A stretch of DNA of 64,000 bases from Mucilaginibacter gossypiicola (GTDB lineage Bacteria > Bacteroidota > Bacteroidia > Sphingobacteriales > Sphingobacteriaceae). The stretch is from NCBI RefSeq assembly GCF_900110105.1, contig NZ_FOCL01000001.1, positions 434,001 to 498,000 of the forward strand. The letters run 5' to 3'. Below the pieces are notes generated by a model, which worked only from the letters and a program-made list of their open reading frames with translations, made no database searches and was not told where the DNA came from. Positions 32,823-55,789 of the stretch are shown here, in pieces. Within the stretch, counting starts at the first letter, position 1. Each line of letters begins with the position of its first letter. The translations under genes and the position numbers were made by a program.

Positions 32823-35800
32823 TTACTTTTTTTCGACAGTTATTAAGGTCCCACTGCCCGGAGATGAATTATAATGAAGCACATAATTAATTTGCTCGGC
32901 CCTGTTTTTCATACTATTTAGGCCGTAGCCATTTGATTTATTGGAGATATCAAACCCTAACCCATCATCTGATATTGAGAATAGAATCTTTTTATTAGTC
33001 CCTGGTTTGACTATGACTTTTATTGTTTGGCATTCAGCATACTTAAAGGAATTGTTTATTGCCTCTTTTGCTATTAATAAAAGGTTCCTTTTTTCCGTTT
33101 TTGATATATTGGGGTTGCCGAGCTCAGGTTCAATGTAGCATTCTAATTTTATTTGATTGGCATGGGCAATTGGGGTAGCAAACTTTTTAACTCTATCTAA
33201 TAGTTCGTTCATATCATCCCGCGAATCTTCTAAAACCCAAAGCATATCCCGCAGACCACCTGTAGTACTGGTTATCAATTTTTCGATTTCTTTTAAATAG
33301 GAGATATTTTGTTTCTTTTCGATAGCCAGGTGGGTAAATATTTTAATTGAGTTTAATGTGCTGCCTAAGTCATCATGCAGGTCATTGGCAATGTCCCTTC
33401 TTATTTGTTGCTGGATTTTAATTTGTTTAATGCGATAATGGTAAAAGGCATTTAAAATTATTACACCTAATACTACCATTGCAAGTTTAAAAAACCAAGT
33501 TTCAAACCATTTGGGTTCAATTTTTACAATGAGTGTTTTAGGATAACTCCAATAACCATCCTCATTCGCCGCCTTTAGTTCAATGGTGTAGGTATTGGGA
33601 GGAAGGCCTATAATATTTATCAGATCGCGATGGCCATTATTTATCCAGTTGGTTTCAATTTCCTTTATACGATATTTATAGGTTACCCGCTTCGGATCTT
33701 CAAAATTGATTCCGGTAAATGATATCGATATTTGCAACCAGTTATTGGGAATCGTTAACGTCTTTATGTCAAGGCTTGTATTAACAAGATTTTGACCATT
33801 GTCTAACTTTACTTCGACGTTAGCAAGGTAGAGGATGGGAGGGATTTTATTTACAAGCAACTTAGAAGGGTCTATCACTGTAAAGCCATTGATGCCTCCG
33901 GCGTAAATTTTATCATGATAAGCCGTAGCAGTTACCTCTTCGAAGCTGTTCGATTGCAATCCATTTTCAATATAGTAATTTTTGAATTTTTGCGCTTTAA
34001 TATTATAGGACGAAAGTCCGTTATTAGACGTAATTAGCAAACTTGAGTCTCTGATATTAAATATGTTATAAACTCCTTCGTTGGATAACCCGTCTTTTTG
34101 TCTGATAAGCTTCCTGACTTTCCACTTGTCATCTATTTGGATAAGCCCATTCCCATAAGATGCGATCCAATAACTGCGATTGAATTCGCACATGTCGAAA
34201 AATAAGTCAAGCTTTGGATATTTTCTTTCCGAAGCAAAATCCAGGCTTTTTGAAATAGTGAAATCAGCATTGATAACCGTTATAACCTTATCTGATAATA
34301 CCCATAAATTTCCAATCTTGTCATGATAAATATTATTAACCGTATTGGAAGCCAAAGCGGGCGATGAAGATGTGTCAATTTTCTTCACGTAGTGTCGTTT
34401 ATAGTTCCAAATTAAAATGCCATCATCGCACTCTGTACCCATTATTACCACCGAATCCCCCACAAAAACATGGCTATTGACTACATGTGCTTTATAACTT
34501 TTCAACTCTGGATAAATGCTTTCAATAGATTTAATAGTTTTTTTTTTCAGTACATGCATCCCCTGGTTTGTGGAAAGGAAAGCCATGTTGTTGCCTAAAA
34601 AGAAAATATGGTGATACAAGTGTGCCCTGTCTAACGTGGTAAAACTATTATCCCCATGATTTACCAAAGTTAATCCGCTGCTTAAACCACATAAAATGTC
34701 TTTATTAGGTAACACACATATCGAGCGCATGTGCTCAAGTTTGTTTCCTGTTTTTTCATCATAATAATATTTTGCGAAAGGACTACTAATAATTTTCATC
34801 ATCCCAATCCCTTGCTGACAACCTAACCAAATCTTGTCACCATCAAAGTAAATTGATTGCACGTAGTTGATCCATTTACTTTCTGCATCGCCGATACTTT
34901 CGTCATAAACAACATAGTTACTCAAAGCAGAATTGAATTGATATAAATGGCCATTGCCGGAAATTATTATATCATCATGCCGAATAGCTTTTATTGCATC
35001 TATTGGGCAACTATTTAATACTTTTAAATTTTTAACAGGATTATTATCAACTGTTAGTGAGTAAAATCTATCGAAATAAACCGTTCTCAAACCCTGATCA
35101 GTGGCAAACAGAATTTCATTGTTATTGACCAGCGTAAAGTCGTTTACGCGAATAGTATTGCGTCCCAAACGGTCTCCGAGGTCTTTTAACTTAATTTCCT
35201 TTATCTTTTTCAGACTGGTTCCGTTATAAATAACAATGCCATAGCGGGTATAACAAACCCAAACATTATTGAAATTATCCCGTCCAATACAATTGATTTC
35301 GGAATTTATAAAGTGGTTCTGAATCTTTTTTGGAGGGGGAATAAATTGCCATTTTTTCGTGTTTAGTATTTTTAACCCCCGAAAGGAACCTATCCATAAA
35401 TTATTTCCACAATTTGTCATGGTGATGTTCCAATCGTCGTTAGCATAATTCGGGATAGATATATTTTTAATTACATCTCCATTCGTGGTATTTATGACAT
35501 GTAATTGATCTCTGTTTGGTAAAATCCATAACGCTTTATGTATGGTATCTTCAATTATTTTACGTACATCAGGGCCCGATATCCGGTGTTTTGGTAAAGA
35601 TTGTTGGGTGTACGATAAAAAAGATTTACCGTCAAACCTGGTTAAGCAATCTTGTGAAGCTACCCAAAGAAATCCATTTTTATCTTTGATAATTTGCTGT
35701 ATATTGTAGCTTGATAATCCATCGGATTGCCCATATTTCACCAGAGACACCCTGACTTTTTGCTGCGCAATCGAATTCGTACCTAAACTAAGTAACAATA

Positions 35801-35834
35801 AAACTCTGATATGGAAAATTTTCCTGAAAATCAA
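32823..35834 (-). CDS. Propeller/Y_Y_Y sensor histidine kinase (HisKA_3 type)
   Basis: 1003 residues. After a signal peptide (about 1-23) come repeated two-component-regulator propeller blades (IIKDKNGFLWVASQDCLTRFDG and similar). A Y_Y_Y domain (about 690-760), one membrane helix (WFFKLAMVVLGVIILNAFYHY) and a NarL-type kinase follow. The phospho-acceptor is His820 in IANDLHDDLGSTL, and the ATPase contains KEAINNSFKYA and DDGLGF. The architecture resembles hybrid PUL sensors but lacks a receiver and AraC domain. The LuxR-type regulator at 38020 is its likely partner, although three other features lie between. The start codon overlaps the divergent peptidase start by 24 bases. Confidence 0.92.
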   Translation of the reverse strand: MIFRKIFHIRVLLLLSLGTNSIAQQKVRVSLVKYGQSDGLSSYNIQQIIKDKNGFLWVASQDCLTRFDGKSFLSYTQQSLPKHRISGPDVRKIIEDTIHKALWILPNRDQLHVINTTNGDVIKNISIPNYANDDWNITMTNCGNNLWIGSFRGLKILNTKKWQFIPPPKKIQNHFINSEINCIGRDNFNNVWVCYTRYGIVIYNGTSLKKIKEIKLKDLGDRLGRNTIRVNDFTLVNNNEILFATDQGLRTVYFDRFYSLTVDNNPVKNLKVLNSCPIDAIKAIRHDDIIISGNGHLYQFNSALSNYVVYDESIGDAESKWINYVQSIYFDGDKIWLGCQQGIGMMKIISSPFAKYYYDEKTGNKLEHMRSICVLPNKDILCGLSSGLTLVNHGDNSFTTLDRAHLYHHIFFLGNNMAFLSTNQGMHVLKKKTIKSIESIYPELKSYKAHVVNSHVFVGDSVVIMGTECDDGILIWNYKRHYVKKIDTSSSPALASNTVNNIYHDKIGNLWVLSDKVITVINADFTISKSLDFASERKYPKLDLFFDMCEFNRSYWIASYGNGLIQIDDKWKVRKLIRQKDGLSNEGVYNIFNIRDSSLLITSNNGLSSYNIKAQKFKNYYIENGLQSNSFEEVTATAYHDKIYAGGINGFTVIDPSKLLVNKIPPILYLANVEVKLDNGQNLVNTSLDIKTLTIPNNWLQISISFTGINFEDPKRVTYKYRIKEIETNWINNGHRDLINIIGLPPNTYTIELKAANEDGYWSYPKTLIVKIEPKWFETWFFKLAMVVLGVIILNAFYHYRIKQIKIQQQIRRDIANDLHDDLGSTLNSIKIFTHLAIEKKQNISYLKEIEKLITSTTGGLRDMLWVLEDSRDDMNELLDRVKKFATPIAHANQIKLECYIEPELGNPNISKTEKRNLLLIAKEAINNSFKYAECQTIKVIVKPGTNKKILFSISDDGLGFDISNKSNGYGLNSMKNRAEQINYVLHYNSSPGSGTLITVEKK

Positions 35835-37577
35835 TGTAATAAGTGGTTAATTGTCTTTCTAATTTATGCAGATTTTACCACAAATGAAAAGCTTTCTATG
35901 GTTGAAAGAATGAAAATTATGGTTAATAGCATGCTGGGGGATATTATCACTACACCCATCAATAATAAGCAAACCAGGATGTTTGTTATCATGAACAACA
36001 TAAAGTACACATTGGGGAATAAAGCATATAATACAACCGCATTTTTCACAATTGAGGCTAAAAAGAATGGTTTAGGCAACCGTATAAAAAACTGTGAGTT
36101 AGTGGATAATGAAGCGGATGAAAACGGAAACCTTGTTTTACAAAAAGCCGAGCAACTGGCAGATATACTACGAAAAACAAATGTTAAACCCGACGAAGAA
36201 GTTTTCCTTATTACCTGGGATCATGGTTCGGCATTTGGGATCTTCAGAAAAGAAATTCCTGTACTTAATAACAATACAGTTCGAACTGAGATTGACCGGG
36301 ATTTATTCCAATATCCATTCATTAAAATGTTTTGGAACCGGGTTAAACAAAAAGACACGCATGGTTTTTTAAAAAACAAACAAGTTGCAACTACTCATAC
36401 CACTATTCAGGTTGGCCATACTTTAATAAAGATAAGAAACAGCCCGGAAAATGAACAAAGACTTAAGTATTATTTAGAGAGTGAAAGCGGGTTTGTATAT
36501 GATGATAAAGTCAGCAGGATCAGATTTATCGGTGCAGGCGCAAATGCGGACACCGGGCATTCGTTGTTTCAACAGCAAAAAACGGCCATTTTATCTGATG
36601 GACTATTGCAAAATGAGATGGACGTTGAGCCAACGGCTGCGGAAATTTTAACAAACAGCGAGTTGGATAAATGTCTCGAGCTATGGTTATGCGGAAAAAG
36701 GGTTGGTGTTTTATTAATGAGCAACTGCTGGATGATGAATTTGCATACCATGTATACACTTAAGGATAGCGTTAAATGCCTGGTTGCTCCTCAAGGTAGC
36801 ATTGATTTACCAGGCTATAATTTAAAAGACATCCTTACAGAAATAAGCGCTTTCGCCGGTAACAAACTTGAACCTGCTGAATTAGCCAGAACATGTGTAA
36901 CAACATTAGATAATTCTTATTCAAAATCAAAAGCTGTTATGCTCGATAGATCTGAACCCGGTGTACTTAAATTATTTAAAGTGTTCGCCGTTGATTTAAG
37001 TAAAACAACCGGTAACAAAAGCATACTTGTTCAACATAAAGAGCTTCTGGAAGGGCTGATCGATTTACTAATCGATCAGCTGAAAGAGAATAGTGCAGTA
37101 GATACAGAAATGAAATATTTTCTCAAATATGTAAGATCCGTATGCTTCGACTTTACCGGCGGTTTTGTTATGATGATCGATATAGTTAACTGGATAAAAG
37201 CCATTAATTCGGCTAACCAACAATTTAACTCAGATCTGCAGAAACTAACACAAATGTTTACAAGTCAGATTGCTGCTTTTAATCAGGCTGTTTCAAAGAG
37301 TTCCATTGTTATAGAGACATCAAGCGGTTCGGATATTTACAGCCCCAATAATTTGTTTACCTCTAATACTAAAATTGATGATTTTGTAACTATTAAGTTG
37401 CCTCCCACAGGCTATAGCTTTTTTTTTCCAATACAAAATTGTAAAGAAATTATGCATCCCAGCGATTATGCCAACGTAAAAGCCAATGTATTATCCGACA
37501 AGCTATTAGAAGAGTTACCAAACTGGCGCGAGTTTCTAAAATATATCGATCCGCAAATAGATAGTATATTTATCTAA
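35811..37577 (+). CDS. Caspase-like cysteine peptidase (clostripain/C11-related)
   Basis: 588 residues, no signal peptide. The N-terminal strand KWLIVFLIYADFTTNEKL matches the first strand of C11 peptidases. The catalytic dyad is predicted as His138 in LITWDHGSAFG and Cys306 in LLMSNCWMMNLHTMY, each after a hydrophobic strand as in clan CD. The His-Cys spacing of about 168 residues is long for C11 and may hold an activation loop. The usual D-x-C is S-N-C here. The C-terminal 200 residues are unassigned. A downstream ATG would delete the first strand, so 35811 is kept despite overlapping the divergent kinase start. The region is AT-richer than regions 1 and 2. The function within the cassette is unknown. 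Confidence 0.75.
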   Translation: MENFPENQCNKWLIVFLIYADFTTNEKLSMVERMKIMVNSMLGDIITTPINNKQTRMFVIMNNIKYTLGNKAYNTTAFFTIEAKKNGLGNRIKNCELVDNEADENGNLVLQKAEQLADILRKTNVKPDEEVFLITWDHGSAFGIFRKEIPVLNNNTVRTEIDRDLFQYPFIKMFWNRVKQKDTHGFLKNKQVATTHTTIQVGHTLIKIRNSPENEQRLKYYLESESGFVYDDKVSRIRFIGAGANADTGHSLFQQQKTAILSDGLLQNEMDVEPTAAEILTNSELDKCLELWLCGKRVGVLLMSNCWMMNLHTMYTLKDSVKCLVAPQGSIDLPGYNLKDILTEISAFAGNKLEPAELARTCVTTLDNSYSKSKAVMLDRSEPGVLKLFKVFAVDLSKTTGNKSILVQHKELLEGLIDLLIDQLKENSAVDTEMKYFLKYVRSVCFDFTGGFVMMIDIVNWIKAINSANQQFNSDLQKLTQMFTSQIAAFNQAVSKSSIVIETSSGSDIYSPNNLFTSNTKIDDFVTIKLPPTGYSFFFPIQNCKEIMHPSDYANVKANVLSDKLLEELPNWREFLKYIDPQIDSIFI

Positions 37578-37580
37578 CTG

Positions 37581-37940
37581 TTAACTGCCTCCTTGTCGGC
37601 CTTTAGTTGCTTCTGTAATTAAAAAAACATCATTTCTATCAGTTCCAAGGCTAAACTGGCCTGTTGTTACATTTTCCCCAAGTGACAGCTTTTTCACTTT
37701 AGAGCCGCCACCTAAATTTAAAGAATTGGCACTATCCTTTATAAACACAGCAGTATTAATATCACTAATATCTCCCGAAGTTCTAATCGCACATGTTGCA
37801 CATTGGCTTAATACGAAGTTCAATGTAATTGCAATAGTACCGTCTGAATTAACTTTTACAATTGTTCCGTTTTCCTGGAAATCGAAGGTTGCTCCCACCT
37901 GAATGGCAAATTCGGTTGGATCTAATTTAGTCTTGGCCAT
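37581..37940 (-). CDS. Small protein of unknown function, convergent with the caspase-like peptidase
   Basis: 119 residues with no signal peptide or membrane segment. The composition suggests beta structure (Gly, Thr, Asn, Val rich), with one Cys pair in SQCATCAIRTSG and a basic-glycine end EATKGRQGGS. Its stop lies three bases from the peptidase stop, tail to tail. It precedes the LuxR-type regulator on the same strand. It could be a substrate, inhibitor or structural protein; none is shown by sequence alone. Confidence 0.6.
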   Translation of the reverse strand: MAKTKLDPTEFAIQVGATFDFQENGTIVKVNSDGTIAITLNFVLSQCATCAIRTSGDISDINTAVFIKDSANSLNLGGGSKVKKLSLGENVTTGQFSLGTDRNDVFLITEATKGRQGGS

Positions 37941-38019
37941 TGTTTTAATTTTTATTGTTTAAGGGTTAATTAATTATCATCCTGGTGTATTTACAAGGGC
38001 CGCAACGATACTTCTCTAT

Positions 38020-38658
38020 TCAAAAAACCACCAAATTCTGTCGTATAGCTTCCAATGCCATCCCGGTACGGCTTTTAACATTTAGCTTTACAAACAGCGC
38101 TTCACGATAGCCATCAATCGTTTTTTCTGAAAGAAACATTTTTGATGCTATTTCTTTGTAAGTGAAATCGCTGCATGCTAATTTTAAAAAGGCTTTTTCA
38201 CGGTCTGTAAGCGTAATTTCGTTACTGTCCTGTTTTCTTAGCAAGCGTCTGTAATGCACGCTTAATGTATCACTGTTATAATATCCTGTTTCCCGAACCT
38301 CTAACAAGGCTCTTTCAAGTTCTTTTGGATGAAGGTCTTTAAGCAAATAGGCCGAACAGCCCGCCCTTAACATTCTCAAAATAGAGTGGTCATCTTCTTT
38401 CATCGACAGTGCCACCGTTTTTATTGAAGGATAACCCGCAGCAATTTTAGCAACGGCTGTGGGGCCATCCATTACCGGCATTTGCACGTCAATTAATATG
38501 ATATCGGGCAAGGTTTTAAGTATCCCAATATCCTTTAACAGCTCCTCTCCGTTTAATGCTTCAATAACAACTTCAAAATCATTGAAGGAGCTTATTAAGT
38601 TAGATAAAGACTTCAAAAATAATTGCTGATCGTCGGCTATACCTATCGTTATTTTCAT
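38020..38658 (-). CDS. LuxR/NarL-family response regulator
   Basis: 212 residues. The receiver has an acidic pocket D9-D10, phospho-acceptor Asp57 (IILIDVQMPVMDG) and a Lys in AYLLKDLHPKEL. The LuxR-type helix-turn-helix is LTDREKAFLKLACSDFTYKEIASKMFLSEKTIDGYREALF. Such regulators pair with HisKA_3 kinases, and the only one in the window is at 32823-35834. Symmetric sites lie just upstream in the 283-base divergent region. Confidence 0.92.
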   Translation of the reverse strand: MKITIGIADDQQLFLKSLSNLISSFNDFEVVIEALNGEELLKDIGILKTLPDIILIDVQMPVMDGPTAVAKIAAGYPSIKTVALSMKEDDHSILRMLRAGCSAYLLKDLHPKELERALLEVRETGYYNSDTLSVHYRRLLRKQDSNEITLTDREKAFLKLACSDFTYKEIASKMFLSEKTIDGYREALFVKLNVKSRTGMALEAIRQNLVVF

Positions 38659-38700
38659 GGAAATATTATGTGACTTCAGATGGTATTAGGTTGTATTAAT

Positions 38701-38725
38701 GCATATTAAACATCCATTAATATGC
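38701..38725. promoter_or_regulatory. Inverted repeat upstream of the LuxR-type regulator
   Basis: Perfect 9-bp arms GCATATTAA and TTAATATGC with a 7-base spacer, 43 bases upstream of the regulator start. A candidate operator for autoregulation. Confidence 0.4.
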
Positions 38726-38828
38726 TGTTCTAATGTCCAAATATATATCCGTATTTCAAAGACGTTAGCATAGCTTTTTACTTATCTAAAAGCCAGTACA
38801 ATTATAAATACCGCAGCCTTATTTGAGT

Positions 38829-38898
38829 ACCGGAAATTTCCGGTTTCATTATCGGGATTATTCCTCTTTACCTGCATATCACTGGTCATCTAACTTTA
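38829..38898 (+). promoter_or_regulatory. Palindrome and -7 element upstream of the HELLE-protein operon
   Basis: ACCGGAAATTTCCGGT (38829-38844) is a perfect 16-bp palindrome. TAACTTTA (38891-38898) matches the -7 consensus except the last base and lies 43 bases before the ATG at 38942. The palindrome is a plausible binding site for the LuxR-type regulator. Confidence 0.45.
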
Positions 38899-38941
38899 CT
38901 TCAATAAAATTTCAATCATTAACTCTTTAATATTCAAAGCG

Positions 38942-40021
38942 ATGAGCAGCATTAAAATAGCCGTCCAAAATCAATTTATTGGACTAACAGATCAACAAGT
39001 TCAGGCAGTTGTAGATGCTTTACAGATACAGGTACACGAGCACTTTGCCCCAGCCTGGGGAATAGATGCAGAGATAACTTTTTATCCGAAAGGGGCTTTG
39101 CCGTCTGGGGCCTGGCAGCTGATCATTTTAGACAACTCAGACCAGGCCGGCGCATTAGGCTATCACGATTTAACCAGCGAAGGCTTGCCATTGGGCAAAG
39201 TATTTGCCGGTACAGATCTTAAGTTCGGCACTTCATGGTCGGTAACGGCAAGTCATGAACTGCTTGAAATGCTGGGTGACCCGGATATCAACTTAACTGT
39301 TTTTGTTGAAAATAAAGCCGGTACCGGCGTGCTGTATGCTTATGAAAATTGTGATGCCTGCGAAGATGACAGTTTTGCTTACCTGATTAACGGCATTAAA
39401 GTTTCTGACTTCGTATTTCCATCATGGTTTCAGAAATTTCATTTACCCGGTACTCAATTTGATTACGGTAAGCATATTACACAGCCTTTTGAATTATTAA
39501 AAGGTGGTTATATCGGTGTATATGATATTGAATCCGGAAGCGGCTGGCAGCAGAAATACCCGGCAGACCAAGTGCTGAAATATAGTATGCGGGCGCACAT
39601 TGGCAGTAGGAGAGAGCGAAGAAAAACACCAAAGTCGCAATGGTTAAAAAGTAGCGCTAATGTAGTTTCATCTCCAAAACTTAAATATGTACGAGCAATT
39701 ATGGGAGATGAAGGCGGTTTTAAACCAATCACATTTATAGTAAAGTTTTTTGATGGCCGAGGCGGGATTTGCTTTTTTGATTTTCAGGGAAGTATGGGTA
39801 GTGGAAGGTGCATTAATTCTGATGACGGAGATACTCAATCCTTTACCGTAAATCAGGTTTTAGGAGACCAAAGCATTGTAGTTACTGGTAATGCGCCAAA
39901 CGGAGGGAAAATTACGGTTGAAGTTCGGGATGCCCACGGAACGGTCCTGTCTTCTGCAAATGATAACACATTTGACCAAAATATTATTGATAGTTTCATT
40001 AAATCTTATACCGTTAGCTAA
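38942..40021 (+). CDS. Putative zinc metallopeptidase-like protein with HELLE motif
   Basis: 359 residues, no signal peptide. Motifs in order are HEHFAPAWG (about 32-40), the candidate zinc site TASHELLEMLGDP (His105, Glu106, Glu109, Asp113) and YAYENCDACEDDSFAYLING followed by FVFPSWF. This recurring set is known from uncharacterised bacterial proteins; the H-E-x-x-E pattern lacks the second His of classical HExxH enzymes, so peptidase activity is unproven. The C-terminal 120 residues form a separate beta-rich domain. It leads a four-gene operon with the next gene 8 bases on. Confidence 0.7.
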   Translation: MSSIKIAVQNQFIGLTDQQVQAVVDALQIQVHEHFAPAWGIDAEITFYPKGALPSGAWQLIILDNSDQAGALGYHDLTSEGLPLGKVFAGTDLKFGTSWSVTASHELLEMLGDPDINLTVFVENKAGTGVLYAYENCDACEDDSFAYLINGIKVSDFVFPSWFQKFHLPGTQFDYGKHITQPFELLKGGYIGVYDIESGSGWQQKYPADQVLKYSMRAHIGSRRERRKTPKSQWLKSSANVVSSPKLKYVRAIMGDEGGFKPITFIVKFFDGRGGICFFDFQGSMGSGRCINSDDGDTQSFTVNQVLGDQSIVVTGNAPNGGKITVEVRDAHGTVLSSANDNTFDQNIIDSFIKSYTVS

Positions 40022-40029
40022 ACCATATC

Positions 40030-41181
40030 ATGAAAAAAGTTTATCTTATAGTGATGTTGCTATTCTCAATAGCAAGTAGGGCACTCTGTCAACAAACATC
40101 GCCGGACGAAAACGATGCTATAACGAGAACAATAGCAAATACTCCTACCAAATCGAGTGTTAGTTATGAGGCTCTGACCAAATTTTTTCAATCAACCGTT
40201 ACGACATTAAATGGAGGCGGATATCAATTCAAATCAACTTTGTTTAATACATTCAATCTATTTAAAGATGGTCGCCTGGATTTATCCAATTATTACACCA
40301 GTAAAGCCGGGCGATTTGCAAGAAATTTTGAATACAGTCTGGGTATTGATAAGGGTAAAAGTGGAGGGTTTAACATATTAACAGGCGGATTTAAATATGC
40401 AATTATTAATAATCGCGATAAAAGTGAGCACAACTTCTTTAATGATTTTTTTTTGATAGATAAAAGAATTGGAAATGCAAATGCTAATGCCGAAGGCATC
40501 TATCGAGCAGAAATCGCCGAAATAAAAAAGCAGGACCCCAAAAAAGCCTCCCAAATGGAAGCCGACTTGAAAAGTTCCAATGAAAAATTTAGAACATCTC
40601 ATAATTTATCAGACTTATCAAAGCGCATACAAGATTTGAGAGATAGCCTGATAGGGTCCGCAAGAAAAGATTTACAAACGCAATATGATAAGAAAGCCAA
40701 GCAACTTGACATGAAAAGCCTGCTTACTTTAAGCGTGAATCCGGAATATAAATGGAACACTAAAACACTTGATAGCACTAATTTTGCCTTAAGATACCTT
40801 GTTGGAATAGGAAAAAAATCGGAAAAACCATGGTTTTTAGATTTGCAGTTTAACGATATCTTAAAACATGATACCATGTCAAATAAAGGGTTAGGTAGAA
40901 ACCTTATTAGAATCTATGCTGGGGGTAATAAAATTCTGGCTAACGATAAGGAGAACAATCCCTTGTTTGAAATGGAGTTTGCTTTGGAAGAAAACTGGAT
41001 AACAAATAAGGTTTTGTATACAAATGAAGAACGAAACACACTCAAGTTTGACGCAGTATTTAGTCTTCATATTACTAAAGAATTTACGCTGCCTGTTACG
41101 TTAAAATATGACCTTAAAAAACCAAACTTGTTTGGTTTTTTAACCCTTCAATGGAATCTGCAAGGTAAAACATCTAATTAA
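40030..41181 (+). CDS. Exported, probably outer-membrane barrel-like protein of unknown function
   Basis: 383 residues with a signal peptide (MKKVYLIVMLLFSIASRALCQ). N- and C-terminal parts are aromatic, alternating, strand-like sequence (GGFNILTGGFKYAIIN; FTLPVTLKYDLKKPNLFGFLTLQWNL). They flank a charged helical middle of about 100 residues (EIAEIKKQDPKKASQMEADL). Insertion of a coiled region in a barrel is inferred from composition only. Confidence 0.6.
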   Translation: MKKVYLIVMLLFSIASRALCQQTSPDENDAITRTIANTPTKSSVSYEALTKFFQSTVTTLNGGGYQFKSTLFNTFNLFKDGRLDLSNYYTSKAGRFARNFEYSLGIDKGKSGGFNILTGGFKYAIINNRDKSEHNFFNDFFLIDKRIGNANANAEGIYRAEIAEIKKQDPKKASQMEADLKSSNEKFRTSHNLSDLSKRIQDLRDSLIGSARKDLQTQYDKKAKQLDMKSLLTLSVNPEYKWNTKTLDSTNFALRYLVGIGKKSEKPWFLDLQFNDILKHDTMSNKGLGRNLIRIYAGGNKILANDKENNPLFEMEFALEENWITNKVLYTNEERNTLKFDAVFSLHITKEFTLPVTLKYDLKKPNLFGFLTLQWNLQGKTSN

Positions 41182-41199
41182 CCATCAAACCATATTATC

Positions 41200-41505
41200 A
41201 TGCCAAATGTAAAATGTATAACTCCTGATTGTCCTTGCTGGATTTCGGATCCCTGCGTCAAAACAAATGCATTATTTCAAATAAGAACCGATCTTTTAGA
41301 ACGATTAGTCCAAGCCCCTGCCGACAAACAGATATCGGCCAGTATTAATCAAGTTGACTCGCTTATTGTAAGCGAGTTGGGGATCCAGGATATCCACGCC
41401 CAACATCAGTTATTCAAAAAATCAGGCACACAAAGAACTGTGTTTCATTTATTTACCCTTGTTTGTGTGCTTAACCATAAAAATCAATACAACATAAGCT
41501 GTTAA
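41200..41505 (+). CDS. Small protein with N-terminal cysteine cluster, unknown function
   Basis: 101 residues. Four cysteines lie within the first 20 (CITPDCPCWISDPC), suggesting a metal site, and one more at each of two C-terminal positions. The rest is helical. Located 18 bases after the barrel-like gene and 4 before the membrane-protein gene, so in the same operon. Confidence 0.55.
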   Translation: MPNVKCITPDCPCWISDPCVKTNALFQIRTDLLERLVQAPADKQISASINQVDSLIVSELGIQDIHAQHQLFKKSGTQRTVFHLFTLVCVLNHKNQYNISC

Positions 41506-41509
41506 AGTT

Positions 41510-42298
41510 ATGGCAATCAATGATACGAATGTTGTTTCGGACCCTTTTTGGCTTAATATCGGGGCCGAAGAAGTTTACAACTCAGCTCCAAACAGAAAAG
41601 ATGCTATCCAAAAATTACAGGCAGCTATTGCATGGGTTTTTACTGTTTATACGGCAACAACAATGGGATCGGTAGTTTTTTCAAAAAAAGACGACTGGAA
41701 TATTTATTCATTATTGTTATTGGGATTTGCCTTTATGAGCTTAACTATGGCATACTGGCTGGCAACTATTGCTTATTTCCCCGTACCTGAATCATTTTAT
41801 GCGGCCGATCCGGAATCTGTACGGGCCGCTTTTAACAAAGCTGCAAAGCGAAATAATATTCGGTTTAAATCGGCAGTTATACTTACTTCAATTGGTGTGT
41901 TTTTTTATAGCGTTGGATTGTTGGCGCAGTTTGGGGCGCCCGCTTTTAAAAAATATTTCGCAAACACTGAAAAGTGTGCAGGCCTGAACGCCACATTGGT
42001 TAAAAGTAACAACGCTAAAATGGTTACTTTAAAAATAAGTTCAACAAAAAACTCCTGGCATCAGGTGTGGATTTTGCATGATACGGTGGCAAACAAAAAG
42101 AAAATTACTGATACTATCGCTGTTGACAATTGCTGTTTCGGAAAGGAGCATTGGTTGTTTGCCGACTCAACTGCAACCTGTATCCTCAAATTCAAAGCCC
42201 CCCAAAAGCAGCACCTATATGTAATTATTAATAGAGTGGATACCCTATTAAAAGGGAAGCTTGTACTAACTTATAAGTTAAAGTATCCTATTTATTAA
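41510..42298 (+). CDS. Three-helix membrane protein of unknown function
   Basis: 262 residues. Hydrophobic helices lie at about 38-56, 64-86 and 119-138 (the last SAVILTSIGVFFYSVGLLAQFG). They are followed by an extracytoplasmic-type domain of about 110 residues rich in strands (TLKISSTKNSWHQVWILHDTV). The last gene of the cassette; the sequence beyond is the presumed prophage edge. Confidence 0.6.
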   Translation: MAINDTNVVSDPFWLNIGAEEVYNSAPNRKDAIQKLQAAIAWVFTVYTATTMGSVVFSKKDDWNIYSLLLLGFAFMSLTMAYWLATIAYFPVPESFYAADPESVRAAFNKAAKRNNIRFKSAVILTSIGVFFYSVGLLAQFGAPAFKKYFANTEKCAGLNATLVKSNNAKMVTLKISSTKNSWHQVWILHDTVANKKKITDTIAVDNCCFGKEHWLFADSTATCILKFKAPQKQHLYVIINRVDTLLKGKLVLTYKLKYPIY

Positions 42299-42443: not shown

Positions 42444-42453
42444 GCTTAAAAAA

Positions 42454-42468
42454 GTGACCCCGGAGAGG
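42454..42468. other. Candidate prophage left attachment core (tRNA 3'-end-like)
   Basis: GTGACCCCGGAGAGG, read on the - strand, looks like the T-stem and acceptor 3' end of a tRNA, and the tRNA-style terminator follows at 42419-42443. No tRNA body is present. This is expected if phage integration left a bare core here and the intact tRNA lies at the other end, outside the window. The right-hand copy cannot be seen. Confidence 0.35.
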
Positions 42469-45791: not shown

Positions 45792-46319
45792 ATGGAAGCC
45801 ATAATTTACCTTATCAAGTACGCGGCGGTTGTATTGTCGTGTATAGCACTGGCGCTTATCTGCGCCTTCCGATCCGAAATTTACCAATGGTTAAAATCAG
45901 GCATCCAGCGCAAAAAAATAATTTACGGTTGCGAAGCGCGTGGCGACGCCCATGAGCCTTATCTAACCCGGTTTATCATTTTTTACGGCAAAAAGCTTAA
46001 AATCTACTTTCACAAATTTCACCGTAGTGACGCTGTTGACCTTCACGATCACCCCTGGAACTTTGTTAGCATAATCCTTTGGCGCGGCTATATGGAAGAG
46101 GTACCGGACGGATCGGCGCCAGGTTACCGAAAACAAAAACGCATTTGGCCCGGCATGATCATTTACAGGGCTGCACACCACGCTCACCGGGTGGTACTCT
46201 TGAACGATAAGCCAGCCTACACCCTTGTTTTTGTATCGAAATACGTGCGCCAATGGGGCTTTTTTACTTCGCGCGGATGGATGAACTACAAAAATTATTT
46301 CACAGAAAAAGGCTGTTAA
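45792..46319 (+). CDS. Phage cupin-like protein with N-terminal membrane helix
   Basis: 175 residues. A membrane helix at about 5-25 is followed by a cupin-type fold with HDHPWNFVSIILWRGYMEE and HHAHRVVLL, giving the paired His clusters of a metal-binding cupin. Similar phage cupins are uncharacterised. Confidence 0.6.
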   Translation: MEAIIYLIKYAAVVLSCIALALICAFRSEIYQWLKSGIQRKKIIYGCEARGDAHEPYLTRFIIFYGKKLKIYFHKFHRSDAVDLHDHPWNFVSIILWRGYMEEVPDGSAPGYRKQKRIWPGMIIYRAAHHAHRVVLLNDKPAYTLVFVSKYVRQWGFFTSRGWMNYKNYFTEKGC

Positions 46320-46321
46320 TC

Positions 46322-47239
46322 ATGCAAAACTCATCAATTGAATGGACAGACCACACCTTTAACCCTTGGTGGGGCTGTATGAAAGTAAGCGAAGGTTGTA
46401 AAAACTGCTACGCCGAAAAACAGGATAACAGGTACAACCATGAAAACCCGCATTGGGGGCCAAACAGCACCCGGAAAACACAATCCAAACAATATTGGCG
46501 GATGCCTTTTAAGTGGGATTTAGATGCTAAGCAGGTTGGTATAAACGCAAAGGTTTTTTGCGCGAGTATGGGCGATGTATTTGAAGATCACCCGCAATTA
46601 AATGAACTCAGGATTGATCTTTTCTACATCATTATTAACACGCCTAACCTTATATGGCAGCTATTGACCAAGCGCCCTGAAAACATTTTAAAAATGGTAC
46701 CTGATGCATGGTTGAAAAATTGGCCGGATAATGTTTGGATAGGAACAAGCGTAGAAAGCCAGCCTGTTGCGGAAGAGAGAATACCAATATTGTTGATGGT
46801 GCCGGCTAAAGTGCGTTTTTTAAGTTGCGAGCCGCTTTTAGGCCGCCTCGACCTTGCAAACATTTGTAATGGATTTAACGCTTTAACAGGCTTCGACGGA
46901 TATATAAAAAAATTTGCGTATGCCAGGGGTATTGATTGGGTTATATGTGGTGGAGAAAGCGGACATACCGAGCGACCGTTACATATTGAATCAGCCCGAC
47001 AGCTTAGAGACCAATGTGCTAAATATGGGGTGCCATTTTTCTTTAAACAATGGGGCGATTGGGTTGAATTAGATCAAATGCCACCTCATGTAAAGCGCGA
47101 CTTAGAAGACAATTACATACGCGCAAAATCAAAAGTTTTTCACGATGAGAACAACTATTACAGGTTCTATAAGCTGGGGAAAACCATGGCAGGGGCGCTG
47201 CTTGATGGAGTTACACATAAAAACTTTCCTAAAATTTAA
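46322..47239 (+). CDS. Phage Gp37/Gp68 family protein (DUF5131)
   Basis: 305 residues from ATG 46322; an upstream start would overlap the cupin gene. The defining N-terminus SSIEWTDHTFNPWWGC is followed by Cys residues in KVSEGCKNCYAE (C-x6-C-x2-C), KVFCASMGDVFEDH, LTKRPENIL and WVICGGESGHTERP. The family is widespread in phages; the Cys set and barrel-like pattern suggest a radical-SAM-like iron-sulfur protein, but the activity is not established. Confidence 0.88.
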   Translation: MQNSSIEWTDHTFNPWWGCMKVSEGCKNCYAEKQDNRYNHENPHWGPNSTRKTQSKQYWRMPFKWDLDAKQVGINAKVFCASMGDVFEDHPQLNELRIDLFYIIINTPNLIWQLLTKRPENILKMVPDAWLKNWPDNVWIGTSVESQPVAEERIPILLMVPAKVRFLSCEPLLGRLDLANICNGFNALTGFDGYIKKFAYARGIDWVICGGESGHTERPLHIESARQLRDQCAKYGVPFFFKQWGDWVELDQMPPHVKRDLEDNYIRAKSKVFHDENNYYRFYKLGKTMAGALLDGVTHKNFPKI

Positions 47240-54508: not shown

Positions 54509-55789
54509 ATGAGTTTACTTGTATCAGCATTAGCCAAAGGTTATTTCGCCATCTCAGAAGAGGGCGTACACGCCTCATTCCCGTACGCTCAGGCGGTGCT
54601 ATCCGGCAAGCTTGAACCAAAAGCCGCCGAACTCCCAAAAGATACTTTCGAGCGCGTTGTATTAGACGACGAATTTGATGACGGTTGCGAGGGCGATATC
54701 ACCATTTCGCAGGATGACGAGTACACCGGACGCATAGCTGTTATGCGTGTTACCGGTGTAATGATGCATTATGGCGGCATGTGCAGCTATGGTACCGAAG
54801 ATTACGCGGCCCGCATCAATGAATATGCTGCCGATGAAAGCATTGCCGGCCTTATCATCCTGGCCGATACACCAGGCGGGCAGGTAGATGGCATTGAAAC
54901 ACTCAGGCTTGCCGTTCAAAGCTTCCGCGCGCAGAAACCTTTACTTACCCTCGTTAATGATGGCAGCATGGCCAGCGGCGGCGTATGGGCATTTATAGGC
55001 AGTACCGAAGTATATGCAGCCAACATGCTTTGCATGCTGGGCAGCGTGGGCGTTATGGCTACGCTGCTGGATATCAGGAAGGCTTTGGAGATGAACGGTA
55101 TTGAGCAGATCATTATTCGGGCCCCTCAAAGCGTTGACAAAAACAAAGATGTTGAAGATGCCCTGAACGGTAAAAAAGCCGCGCTGCTGGCCGAACTCAA
55201 ATTTATTTGCGACCGCTTTTTAAACGTGGTTACCGACGACCGCGCCGATAAACTCACAAGCGACGAATGGAAAACCGGAAAGATGTTTTTTGCCGAAGAT
55301 GCCCAGCGCATAGGCCTGATAGACGGGATAAAAAACTACACCGAAGTAGTGGCCCGTATGCAGCAACTCATAGCACAAAATCAAGATCAAAATAAAATGT
55401 TTGGAAACAAATTACCGAAGGTAGCCGCGCTCAAAGGCGTTGAAACCATCACGGCCGAAAATCTCGAAGCCGCAAACGAAGAGATAGAAGCTTTCGGGAT
55501 AAAGGGTGTTACCCTTTGCCTTGATAGCGAAATTGAACAATTAACCGCTGTTGAAGGCCAGTTAACAACCGCCAACAACACCATTGCAGCGCATGTGAAA
55601 ACTATAGGCGAAAAAGACGCTAAGATAGCTGCGCTACAGGCAAAGGTTGATGCTAAGCCAGGATCTGAGCCGGTATCTCCTGGTGCGGAGCGCGATAATA
55701 TCCAACCTACAGCAGGTACACAAGAAGCCGAATTAACCTCTGTTGAGAAGGAACTGCGCCAAATGTACGCCATGCACAGCACTAATTAA
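54509..55789 (+). CDS. Phage S49/ClpP-like capsid maturation protease with scaffold-like tail
   Basis: 426 residues. Residues 75-270 form an S49 (SppA-type) protease: strand IAVMRVTGVMMHYGG, oxyanion-region ADTPGGQVDG, nucleophile Ser156 in DGSMASGGVW, and MLGSVGVM. Residues about 290-426 are a coiled, Glu/Ala-rich segment (VEGQLTTANNTIAAHVKTIGEKDAKIAALQ), usual for phage proteases fused to an internal scaffold. Immediately upstream of the capsid gene. Confidence 0.88.
   Translation: MSLLVSALAKGYFAISEEGVHASFPYAQAVLSGKLEPKAAELPKDTFERVVLDDEFDDGCEGDITISQDDEYTGRIAVMRVTGVMMHYGGMCSYGTEDYAARINEYAADESIAGLIILADTPGGQVDGIETLRLAVQSFRAQKPLLTLVNDGSMASGGVWAFIGSTEVYAANMLCMLGSVGVMATLLDIRKALEMNGIEQIIIRAPQSVDKNKDVEDALNGKKAALLAELKFICDRFLNVVTDDRADKLTSDEWKTGKMFFAEDAQRIGLIDGIKNYTEVVARMQQLIAQNQDQNKMFGNKLPKVAALKGVETITAENLEAANEEIEAFGIKGVTLCLDSEIEQLTAVEGQLTTANNTIAAHVKTIGEKDAKIAALQAKVDAKPGSEPVSPGAERDNIQPTAGTQEAELTSVEKELRQMYAMHSTN

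What the first reader, a model, noticed from the sequence alone, without database searches (positions are those of the whole stretch)
32823..42298. Unrecognised cassette: sensor kinase, caspase-like peptidase, LuxR regulator, HELLE protein and envelope proteins
Seen: a propeller kinase, a C11-type peptidase with predicted His138/Cys306, a small tail-to-tail protein, a NarL-type regulator, then a four-gene operon with a HELLE zinc motif, an exported barrel-like protein, a Cys-rich protein and a three-helix membrane protein. The region is AT-richer than regions 1 and 2 and adjoins a prophage. Inference: a signal-controlled proteolysis system at the envelope, possibly stress or defence related. 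I know no described system with this gene set.
Basis: partly seen in the sequence, partly recalled or inferred. Interest (0 to 1): 0.75.

Follow-up and report, generated by a model that had tools for sequence, protein, structure and literature searches.

The report
Two-component-controlled cassette with swappable peptidases
A Mucilaginibacter-type bacterium carries a mobile-looking gene cassette in which a sensor pair and a caspase-type protease stay constant while the neighbouring operon carries a different, unrelated peptidase in different relatives; it looks like an undescribed envelope stress or conflict system, but no function has been shown.

Summary
The cassette is real. Kinase, C11-type peptidase, small tail-to-tail protein and NarL-type regulator recur together in three other Mucilaginibacter genomes (regulator flipped in one) and in a MAG fragment, so they are not independent insertions. 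The HELLE gene is not part of that constant core. In its slot, relatives carry an M36 fungalysin (L004) or a caspase-like protein (L010); a fourth (L011) has no peptidase. A related kinase/regulator operon carries a CHAP hydrolase. A 16-bp palindrome (ACCGGAAATTTCCGGT) lies before the operon in the window, in L004 (twice, once with one mismatch) and in the MAG. It occurs once in the 8.2-Mb genome and, in 150 genus genomes, otherwise only inside two unrelated ORFs. Different effectors thus share one control element.

HELLE proteins form a phage- and plasmid-borne family absent from Pfam, with a metzincin-like predicted fold but a non-canonical HExxE motif; protease activity is unproven. The prophage is a separate insertion: its attL (42453-42467) lies just beyond the cassette.

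Best reading: a two-component-gated cassette with exchangeable peptidases, probably for envelope stress or conflict. The architecture is well supported; defence is only inferred.

The parts
32823..35834 (-). Sensor kinase: Reg_prop propeller, Y_Y_Y, one membrane segment, HisKA_3, HATPase_c (1003 aa, TTG start). The start overlaps the C11 start head-to-head by 24 bp; the overlap is kept in L004 and L010 (24 bp) and L011 (about 35 bp, from start codons chosen by eye)
35811..37577 (+). C11 (clostripain-family) peptidase, 588 aa, dyad His138/Cys306
37581..37940 (-). Small fast-evolving protein (119 aa), tail-to-tail with C11, KGRxG near the C terminus in four of five copies; possible inhibitor or substrate of C11 (inferred)
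38020..38658 (-). NarL/LuxR-type response regulator, 212 aa
38829..38844 (.). Operator-like perfect palindrome ACCGGAAATTTCCGGT, 97 bp before the HELLE start, in a conserved promoter block of about 90 bp
38942..40021 (+). HELLE protein: residues 1 to about 250 metzincin-like HELLE domain, about 250-359 beta-sandwich-like domain that is a separate gene in L004 and L012
40030..41181 (+). Exported protein, 383 aa, signal peptide, many beta strands (outer-membrane barrel suspected; model of low confidence)
41200..41505 (+). Cys-rich protein, 101 aa, 74% identical to the L004 copy
41510..42298 (+). Membrane protein with two or three N-terminal helices, 262 aa; L004 has a YLATT/pYEATS protein in the same operon
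42453..42467 (.). attL of the neighbouring prophage (15-bp copy of the tRNA-Lys 3' end); right limit for the cassette

Best explanation
A two-component-gated, modular cassette. Shown: a constant control core (propeller kinase, C11 peptidase, small protein, NarL-type regulator) sits beside a divergent operon whose enzyme differs between relatives (HELLE, M36 fungalysin, caspase-like protein), while the promoter block with a rare palindrome, the exported protein and the Cys-rich protein persist between the window and L004. Inferred: a cue outside the cytoplasm seen by the propeller activates the kinase; the phosphorylated regulator switches on the operon; the enzyme cleaves protein targets, acting with the membrane and exported proteins at the envelope. 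C11 and the small protein act as a pair (protease with inhibitor or substrate) that sets the threshold or processes a cassette protein. Exchangeable hydrolases, faster divergence of the C11/small pair and mobile contexts make a conflict role (abortive defence or antagonism) somewhat likelier than housekeeping.
For: Core conserved in L004, L010, L011 and partly in L005. Different enzymes in the operon: M36 with intact HEYGH plus Glu; caspase-like protein with TGH and DCC; CHAP in the related operon L093. Shared promoter block and palindrome before different effectors, once in the own genome and nowhere else intergenic in 150 genus genomes. Window against L004: kinase 81% and regulator 81% identical, but C11 51% and small protein 35%, with similar fourfold-site identity for kinase, regulator and C11 (0.46, 0.42, 0.39). 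Mobile contexts: prophage at a tRNA-Lys site beside it, transposases around L004, conjugation-like genes beside L010. The L004 membrane protein is YLATT plus pYEATS; two other YLATT genes of the genus follow a P-loop NTPase-like gene. The exported family occurs in 21 of 150 genus genomes and lies near kinase/regulator genes in 12 of 18 loci.
Against: No phenotype, expression or activity data. Only four full loci and one fragment; the swap rests on three of them and L011 has no peptidase. The caspase-like match is just below Pfam's cut-off (20.4 against 21.4 bits). HELLE, M36 and the caspase-like protein show no signal peptide, so an envelope site of action is not obvious. L010's regulator has a very similar HTH but its promoter lacks the palindrome, so the protein that binds it is unknown. 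No known defence model matches. Faster C11 evolution may be relaxed constraint. How often kinase/regulator genes lie near random genes of this genus was not measured.
Confidence: 0.45

Rival explanations
1. Ordinary adaptive two-component system: the propeller kinase senses an extracellular polymer or envelope stress, and the operon makes enzymes and an outer-membrane protein for nutrient use or repair, with no conflict role.
For: Reg_prop/Y_Y_Y sensors are common nutrient sensors in Bacteroidota (general knowledge); the exported family is widespread in the genus beside kinase/regulator pairs; L011 lies among chromosomal housekeeping-like genes.
Against: No SusC/SusD or glycosidase genes; the enzymes lack signal peptides; unrelated enzymes are exchanged under one promoter element; C11 and the small protein diverge fast.
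Confidence: 0.35
2. Two joined units: a conserved kinase/C11/small/regulator unit, and beside it a phage- or plasmid-derived operon (HELLE) that was captured by chance and is not functionally tied to the core.
For: HELLE homologues are frequent on viral contigs and plasmids and absent from the other C11 genomes; G+C of HELLE is 42.0% against about 35% for its neighbours; the operon ends beside a prophage, and a similar operon without the core lies on a viral-type contig.
Against: The same promoter block precedes HELLE here, M36 and the beta-protein operon in L004, and the L005 MAG operon; exported and Cys-rich proteins are shared with L004; the attL lies outside the operon.
Confidence: 0.15
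3. Prophage cargo (moron): the operon belongs to the neighbouring prophage, as the IMG/VR record that begins just before HELLE suggests.
For: IMG/VR record IMGVR_UViG_2651870109_000001 starts 160 bp before the HELLE gene.
Against: attL and attR with tRNA-Lys place the prophage at 42453 to about 81728, outside the operon; repressor-side and integrase ends fit; the L004 counterpart is flanked by transposases, not by phage structural genes.
Confidence: 0.05

Closest known systems
Predicted prokaryotic immune systems with pYEATS domains and histidine-kinase signalling (Burroughs and Aravind, J Bacteriol 2020; recalled from memory, paper not held)
   Same: Histidine-kinase control, exchangeable effectors, YLATT/pYEATS membrane protein in the L004 copy
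   Different: Constant C11 peptidase with a small partner, HELLE enzyme, exported barrel-like protein; no pYEATS match in the window copy
NTP-dependent conflict systems of multicellular bacteria (PMC7159879)
   Same: Caspase-like and other peptidases as exchangeable effectors
   Different: No MoxR AAA+ or vWA component here; [quoted passage not shown]
C11 peptidases: clostripain and PmC11 (PMC4850288, PMC4357240)
   Same: Pfam C11 match and His/Cys dyad
   Different: About 120 more residues between His and Cys than in PmC11; residue Cys-2 is Ser, Cys, Tyr or Met instead of the S1-pocket Asp, so Arg/Lys preference is not predicted by that residue
Metzincin metallopeptidases (archaemetzincin, ADAMTS, MMP)
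   Same: Predicted fold of HELLE residues 1-177, best Z 7.8
   Different: HExxE instead of HExxHxxGxxH/D; activity unknown
Uncharacterised phage protein A0A6J5KQ96 (uncultured Caudovirales phage)
   Same: Best viral structural match of HELLE, E 9e-9, TM 0.73 over the target
   Different: Stand-alone 197-aa phage protein, no beta domain

Membership tests
Peptidase family C11 | Pfam Peptidase_C11 above the curated cut-off | tested here: met
   36.5 bits against 25.8; L004 33.7, L011 49.7
Peptidase family C11 | Conserved His/Cys dyad | tested here: met
   TWDHGS and xNC in the four full-length homologues
Arg/Lys-specific C11 type (PmC11-like) | Asp at Cys-2 in the S1 pocket | tested here: not met
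   S, C, Y or M at that place; Asp in PmC11 (Asp177, PMC4850288) and in the clostripain-related PDB sequences
Metzincins | HExxHxxGxxH/D zinc motif | tested here: not met
   HExxE in all 29 aligned homologues
Metzincins | Metzincin fold | tested here: inconclusive
   Top 50 VIA-align rows are all metzincin-type catalytic domains, best Z 7.8, below the tool's confident range; Foldseek without a clear match
Two-component system | Kinase with H-box and ATPase domain beside a receiver-HTH regulator | tested here: met
Hybrid two-component regulators of polysaccharide loci | Sensor, kinase, receiver and AraC-type HTH in one protein | tested here: not met
   Separate NarL-type regulator, no receiver or AraC domain in the kinase
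vWA/MoxR conflict systems | MoxR AAA+ and vWA genes | tested here: not met
   Neither domain found in the cassette proteins
Anti-phage systems in PADLOC 2.0.0 | Match to a PADLOC model | tested here: not met
   No meaningful match for the eight genes; weak 'caspase' match in L010 only
YLATT/pYEATS systems | YLATT and pYEATS domains | tested here: inconclusive
   Above cut-off in L004, not detected in the window copy
Plant EXORDIUM/PHI-1 family PF04674 (motif similarity recalled from memory) | Pfam Phi_1 match | tested here: inconclusive
   No match in scans of 10 HELLE proteins; the genome search rang nowhere, controls included

The most novel reading that the evidence does not exclude
An undescribed class of bacterial conflict system in which a propeller two-component pair, a C11 protease and its fast-evolving partner form a fixed trigger for an operon with plug-in peptide hydrolases (HELLE, fungalysin, caspase-like protein, possibly CHAP) that act at the envelope.
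Probability: 0.3. Interest if true: 0.75.

Novelty: new variant of a known kind. Interest (0 to 1): 0.55.

Why it matters
If the operon proves toxic or protective, this would be an example of bacterial proteolytic immunity or antagonism gated by an ordinary two-component pair instead of an NTPase or nucleotide messenger, with effectors exchanged behind one promoter element. It also points to a widespread phage and plasmid protein family (HELLE) with a metzincin-like predicted fold and an altered metal motif that Pfam does not describe, and gives the C11 family a possible regulatory role inside the cell.

Tried and rejected
(1) C11 cleaving the small protein at its KGRxG motif: attractive because clostripain-type enzymes cut after Arg, but residue Cys-2 of this C11 is not Asp and L011 lacks the motif; kept only as a possibility. 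(2) HELLE as part of the prophage: rejected by att sites. (3) C11 on plasmids or viral contigs: none found. (4) HELLE in cultured phages: no tblastn match, although viral contigs hold it. (5) Structure of the exported protein: AlphaFold model too poor (mean pLDDT 40), so no fold search; its strands fit an outer-membrane barrel only loosely. (7) The palindrome as proven regulator site: not claimed, because L010 lacks it; a TATCC-containing block before the regulator gene is conserved in all four aligned loci and is an alternative site. (8) Foldseek alone gave no clear PDB match for HELLE; only the realignment pointed to metzincins. (9) Papers: no held text describes pYEATS/YLATT systems. (10) A tRNA call inside the L011 kinase gene is taken as a false positive.

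Full report
1. What is there. The window lies in an 8.2-Mb Mucilaginibacter-like genome. The eight ORFs of the finding are present. Pfam identifies the propeller kinase, the C11 peptidase and the NarL-type regulator; the other five proteins match no family meaningfully in Pfam, NCBIfam, PADLOC or PHROGs. The cassette is 36.6% G+C against 43.5% to its left. Kinase and C11 start head-to-head with 24 bp of overlap, an arrangement kept in the relatives. C11 and the small protein are tail-to-tail, 3 bp apart here and overlapping by a few bases in L004 and L010.

2. It is one unit. The core kinase, C11, small protein and regulator is found again in M. psychrotolerans (L004, the same cassette as in G062), in G014 (L010), in G026 (L011, regulator flipped and proteins more distant) and, broken by Ns, in a MAG (L005). 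In samples of 200 relatives, 400 genomes of the order and 395 of the phylum no other clear copy appeared; two weak matches elsewhere are ordinary C11 similarity. The cassette is therefore rare.

3. The enzyme slot is exchanged. Next to the regulator lies a divergent operon. In the window it encodes HELLE. In L004 it encodes an M36 fungalysin-type peptidase with an intact HEYGH motif, then a separate small beta protein (the counterpart of HELLE's C-terminal domain), an exported homologue, a YLATT/pYEATS membrane protein and a Cys-rich protein 74% identical to the window's. In L010 it encodes a membrane protein, a caspase-like protein (Pfam C14 just under the cut-off, motifs TGH and DCC) and two exported proteins. 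In L011 no peptidase is present. G008 carries a like operon without enzyme or core.

4. One control element for different enzymes. The perfect palindrome ACCGGAAATTTCCGGT lies 97 bp before the HELLE start. The same site precedes the M36 gene in L004; a copy with one mismatch precedes the beta-protein operon of L004 at the same distance as in the window; the MAG has it too. It occurs once in the 8.2-Mb genome with up to one mismatch. In 150 genus genomes exact matches occur only at these cassettes and in two unrelated coding regions. L010, whose regulator is 73% identical, lacks it, so which protein binds is not shown.

5. A wider relative. Homologues of the exported protein occur in 21 of 150 genus genomes. 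Of 18 loci read, 12 have kinase/regulator genes nearby, seven of them with a further conserved membrane protein, usually divergent from the operon; one such operon encodes a CHAP hydrolase. The background rate of such neighbourhoods was not measured.

6. HELLE. The domain of about 240 residues has homologues on plasmids of Caballeronia (59% identical), Streptomyces, Rhizobium and Paraburkholderia and in 38 viral contigs, one of them the prophage record of this very genome. Pfam has no family for it; PHROGs barely match. H105, E106, E109, P114, E135 and D138 are invariant, D113 nearly so. AlphaFold models residues 1 to about 200 with high confidence. The best structural matches are all metzincin-type domains, Z up to 7.8, but the second zinc histidine is replaced by Glu. 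I regard it as metzincin-like with unproven activity.

7. The prophage is separate. A 15-bp repeat at 42453-42467 and about 39 kb further on, at the 3' end of tRNA-Lys(CTT), with an integrase between them, marks the prophage ends. Before the phage entered, the operon's end lay about 155 bp from the tRNA gene. The IMG/VR record, which begins just before HELLE, overextends the prophage.

8. Rates. Between window and L004 the kinase and regulator are 81% identical, the Cys-rich protein 74%, C11 51%, small protein 35%, exported protein 29%. Fourfold-site identity is alike for kinase, regulator and C11 (0.46, 0.42, 0.39), so they probably diverged together and C11 changes faster at the protein level. 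Fast change of C11 and its tail-to-tail neighbour suits a protease with inhibitor or substrate under changing pressure, or relaxed constraint.

9. Mechanism. Shown: gene content, conserved core, differing enzymes, shared promoter element, att sites. Inferred: signal to kinase to regulator to operon; the enzyme as effector; C11 and small protein as a threshold or processing step; conflict role. Confidence 0.45 for the whole, about 0.85 for 'one modular two-component cassette'.

10. Known kinds. The idea of regulated effectors with exchangeable peptidases is known from conflict systems (PMC7159879). Histidine-kinase and pYEATS versions were, from memory, predicted by Burroughs and Aravind in 2020; that paper could not be read here. 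I found no described system with this gene set, hence 'new variant of a known kind'.

Noticed in passing
window 42453 to contig position of attR (window coordinate about 81728): Prophage with att sites in tRNA-Lys(CTT), integrase at the far end, head maturation protease at 54509-55789; the IMG/VR record of it overextends into the cassette.
   Followed up: yes
L027-L064 (viral contigs), L019-L026 (plasmids): HELLE proteins are a widespread phage and plasmid family without a Pfam entry, many with a C-terminal GSRRERR-like basic tail; in L034-L037 the gene lies in a phage with a major head protein gene nearby.
   Followed up: partly
L023:7908-10367: Rhizobium sp. Pop5 plasmid protein in which the HELLE domain shares a chain with a phospholipase D-like domain, near an S8 peptidase gene.
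   Followed up: no
L050:5887-7002: A HELLE protein followed in frame by repeats of the type RRGYQVDPFGTPWQTDP that look like a precursor-peptide repeat.
   Followed up: no
L020:9562-10732: On a Streptomyces plasmid the HELLE gene lies about 1 kb from an ATP-grasp RiPP pair (tgmA and an MvdC/MvdD-type protein).
   Followed up: no
L112:4502-6956 and L113:4474-6953: Two-gene units of a P-loop NTPase-like protein followed by a YLATT membrane protein, possibly defence systems of their own.
   Followed up: no
L090, L091, L093, L095, L098, L101, L103: Recurrent Mucilaginibacter cassettes: small protein, 216-aa membrane protein, kinase and regulator divergent from a beta protein plus exported-protein operon; three (L093, L101, L103) hold ACCGTA...TACGGT arms 39 bp long overall, L098 a 16-bp form.
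   Followed up: partly
window 46253-47239: Prophage gene resembling the phage Gp37/Gp68 radical-SAM-like type (by eye only).
   Followed up: no
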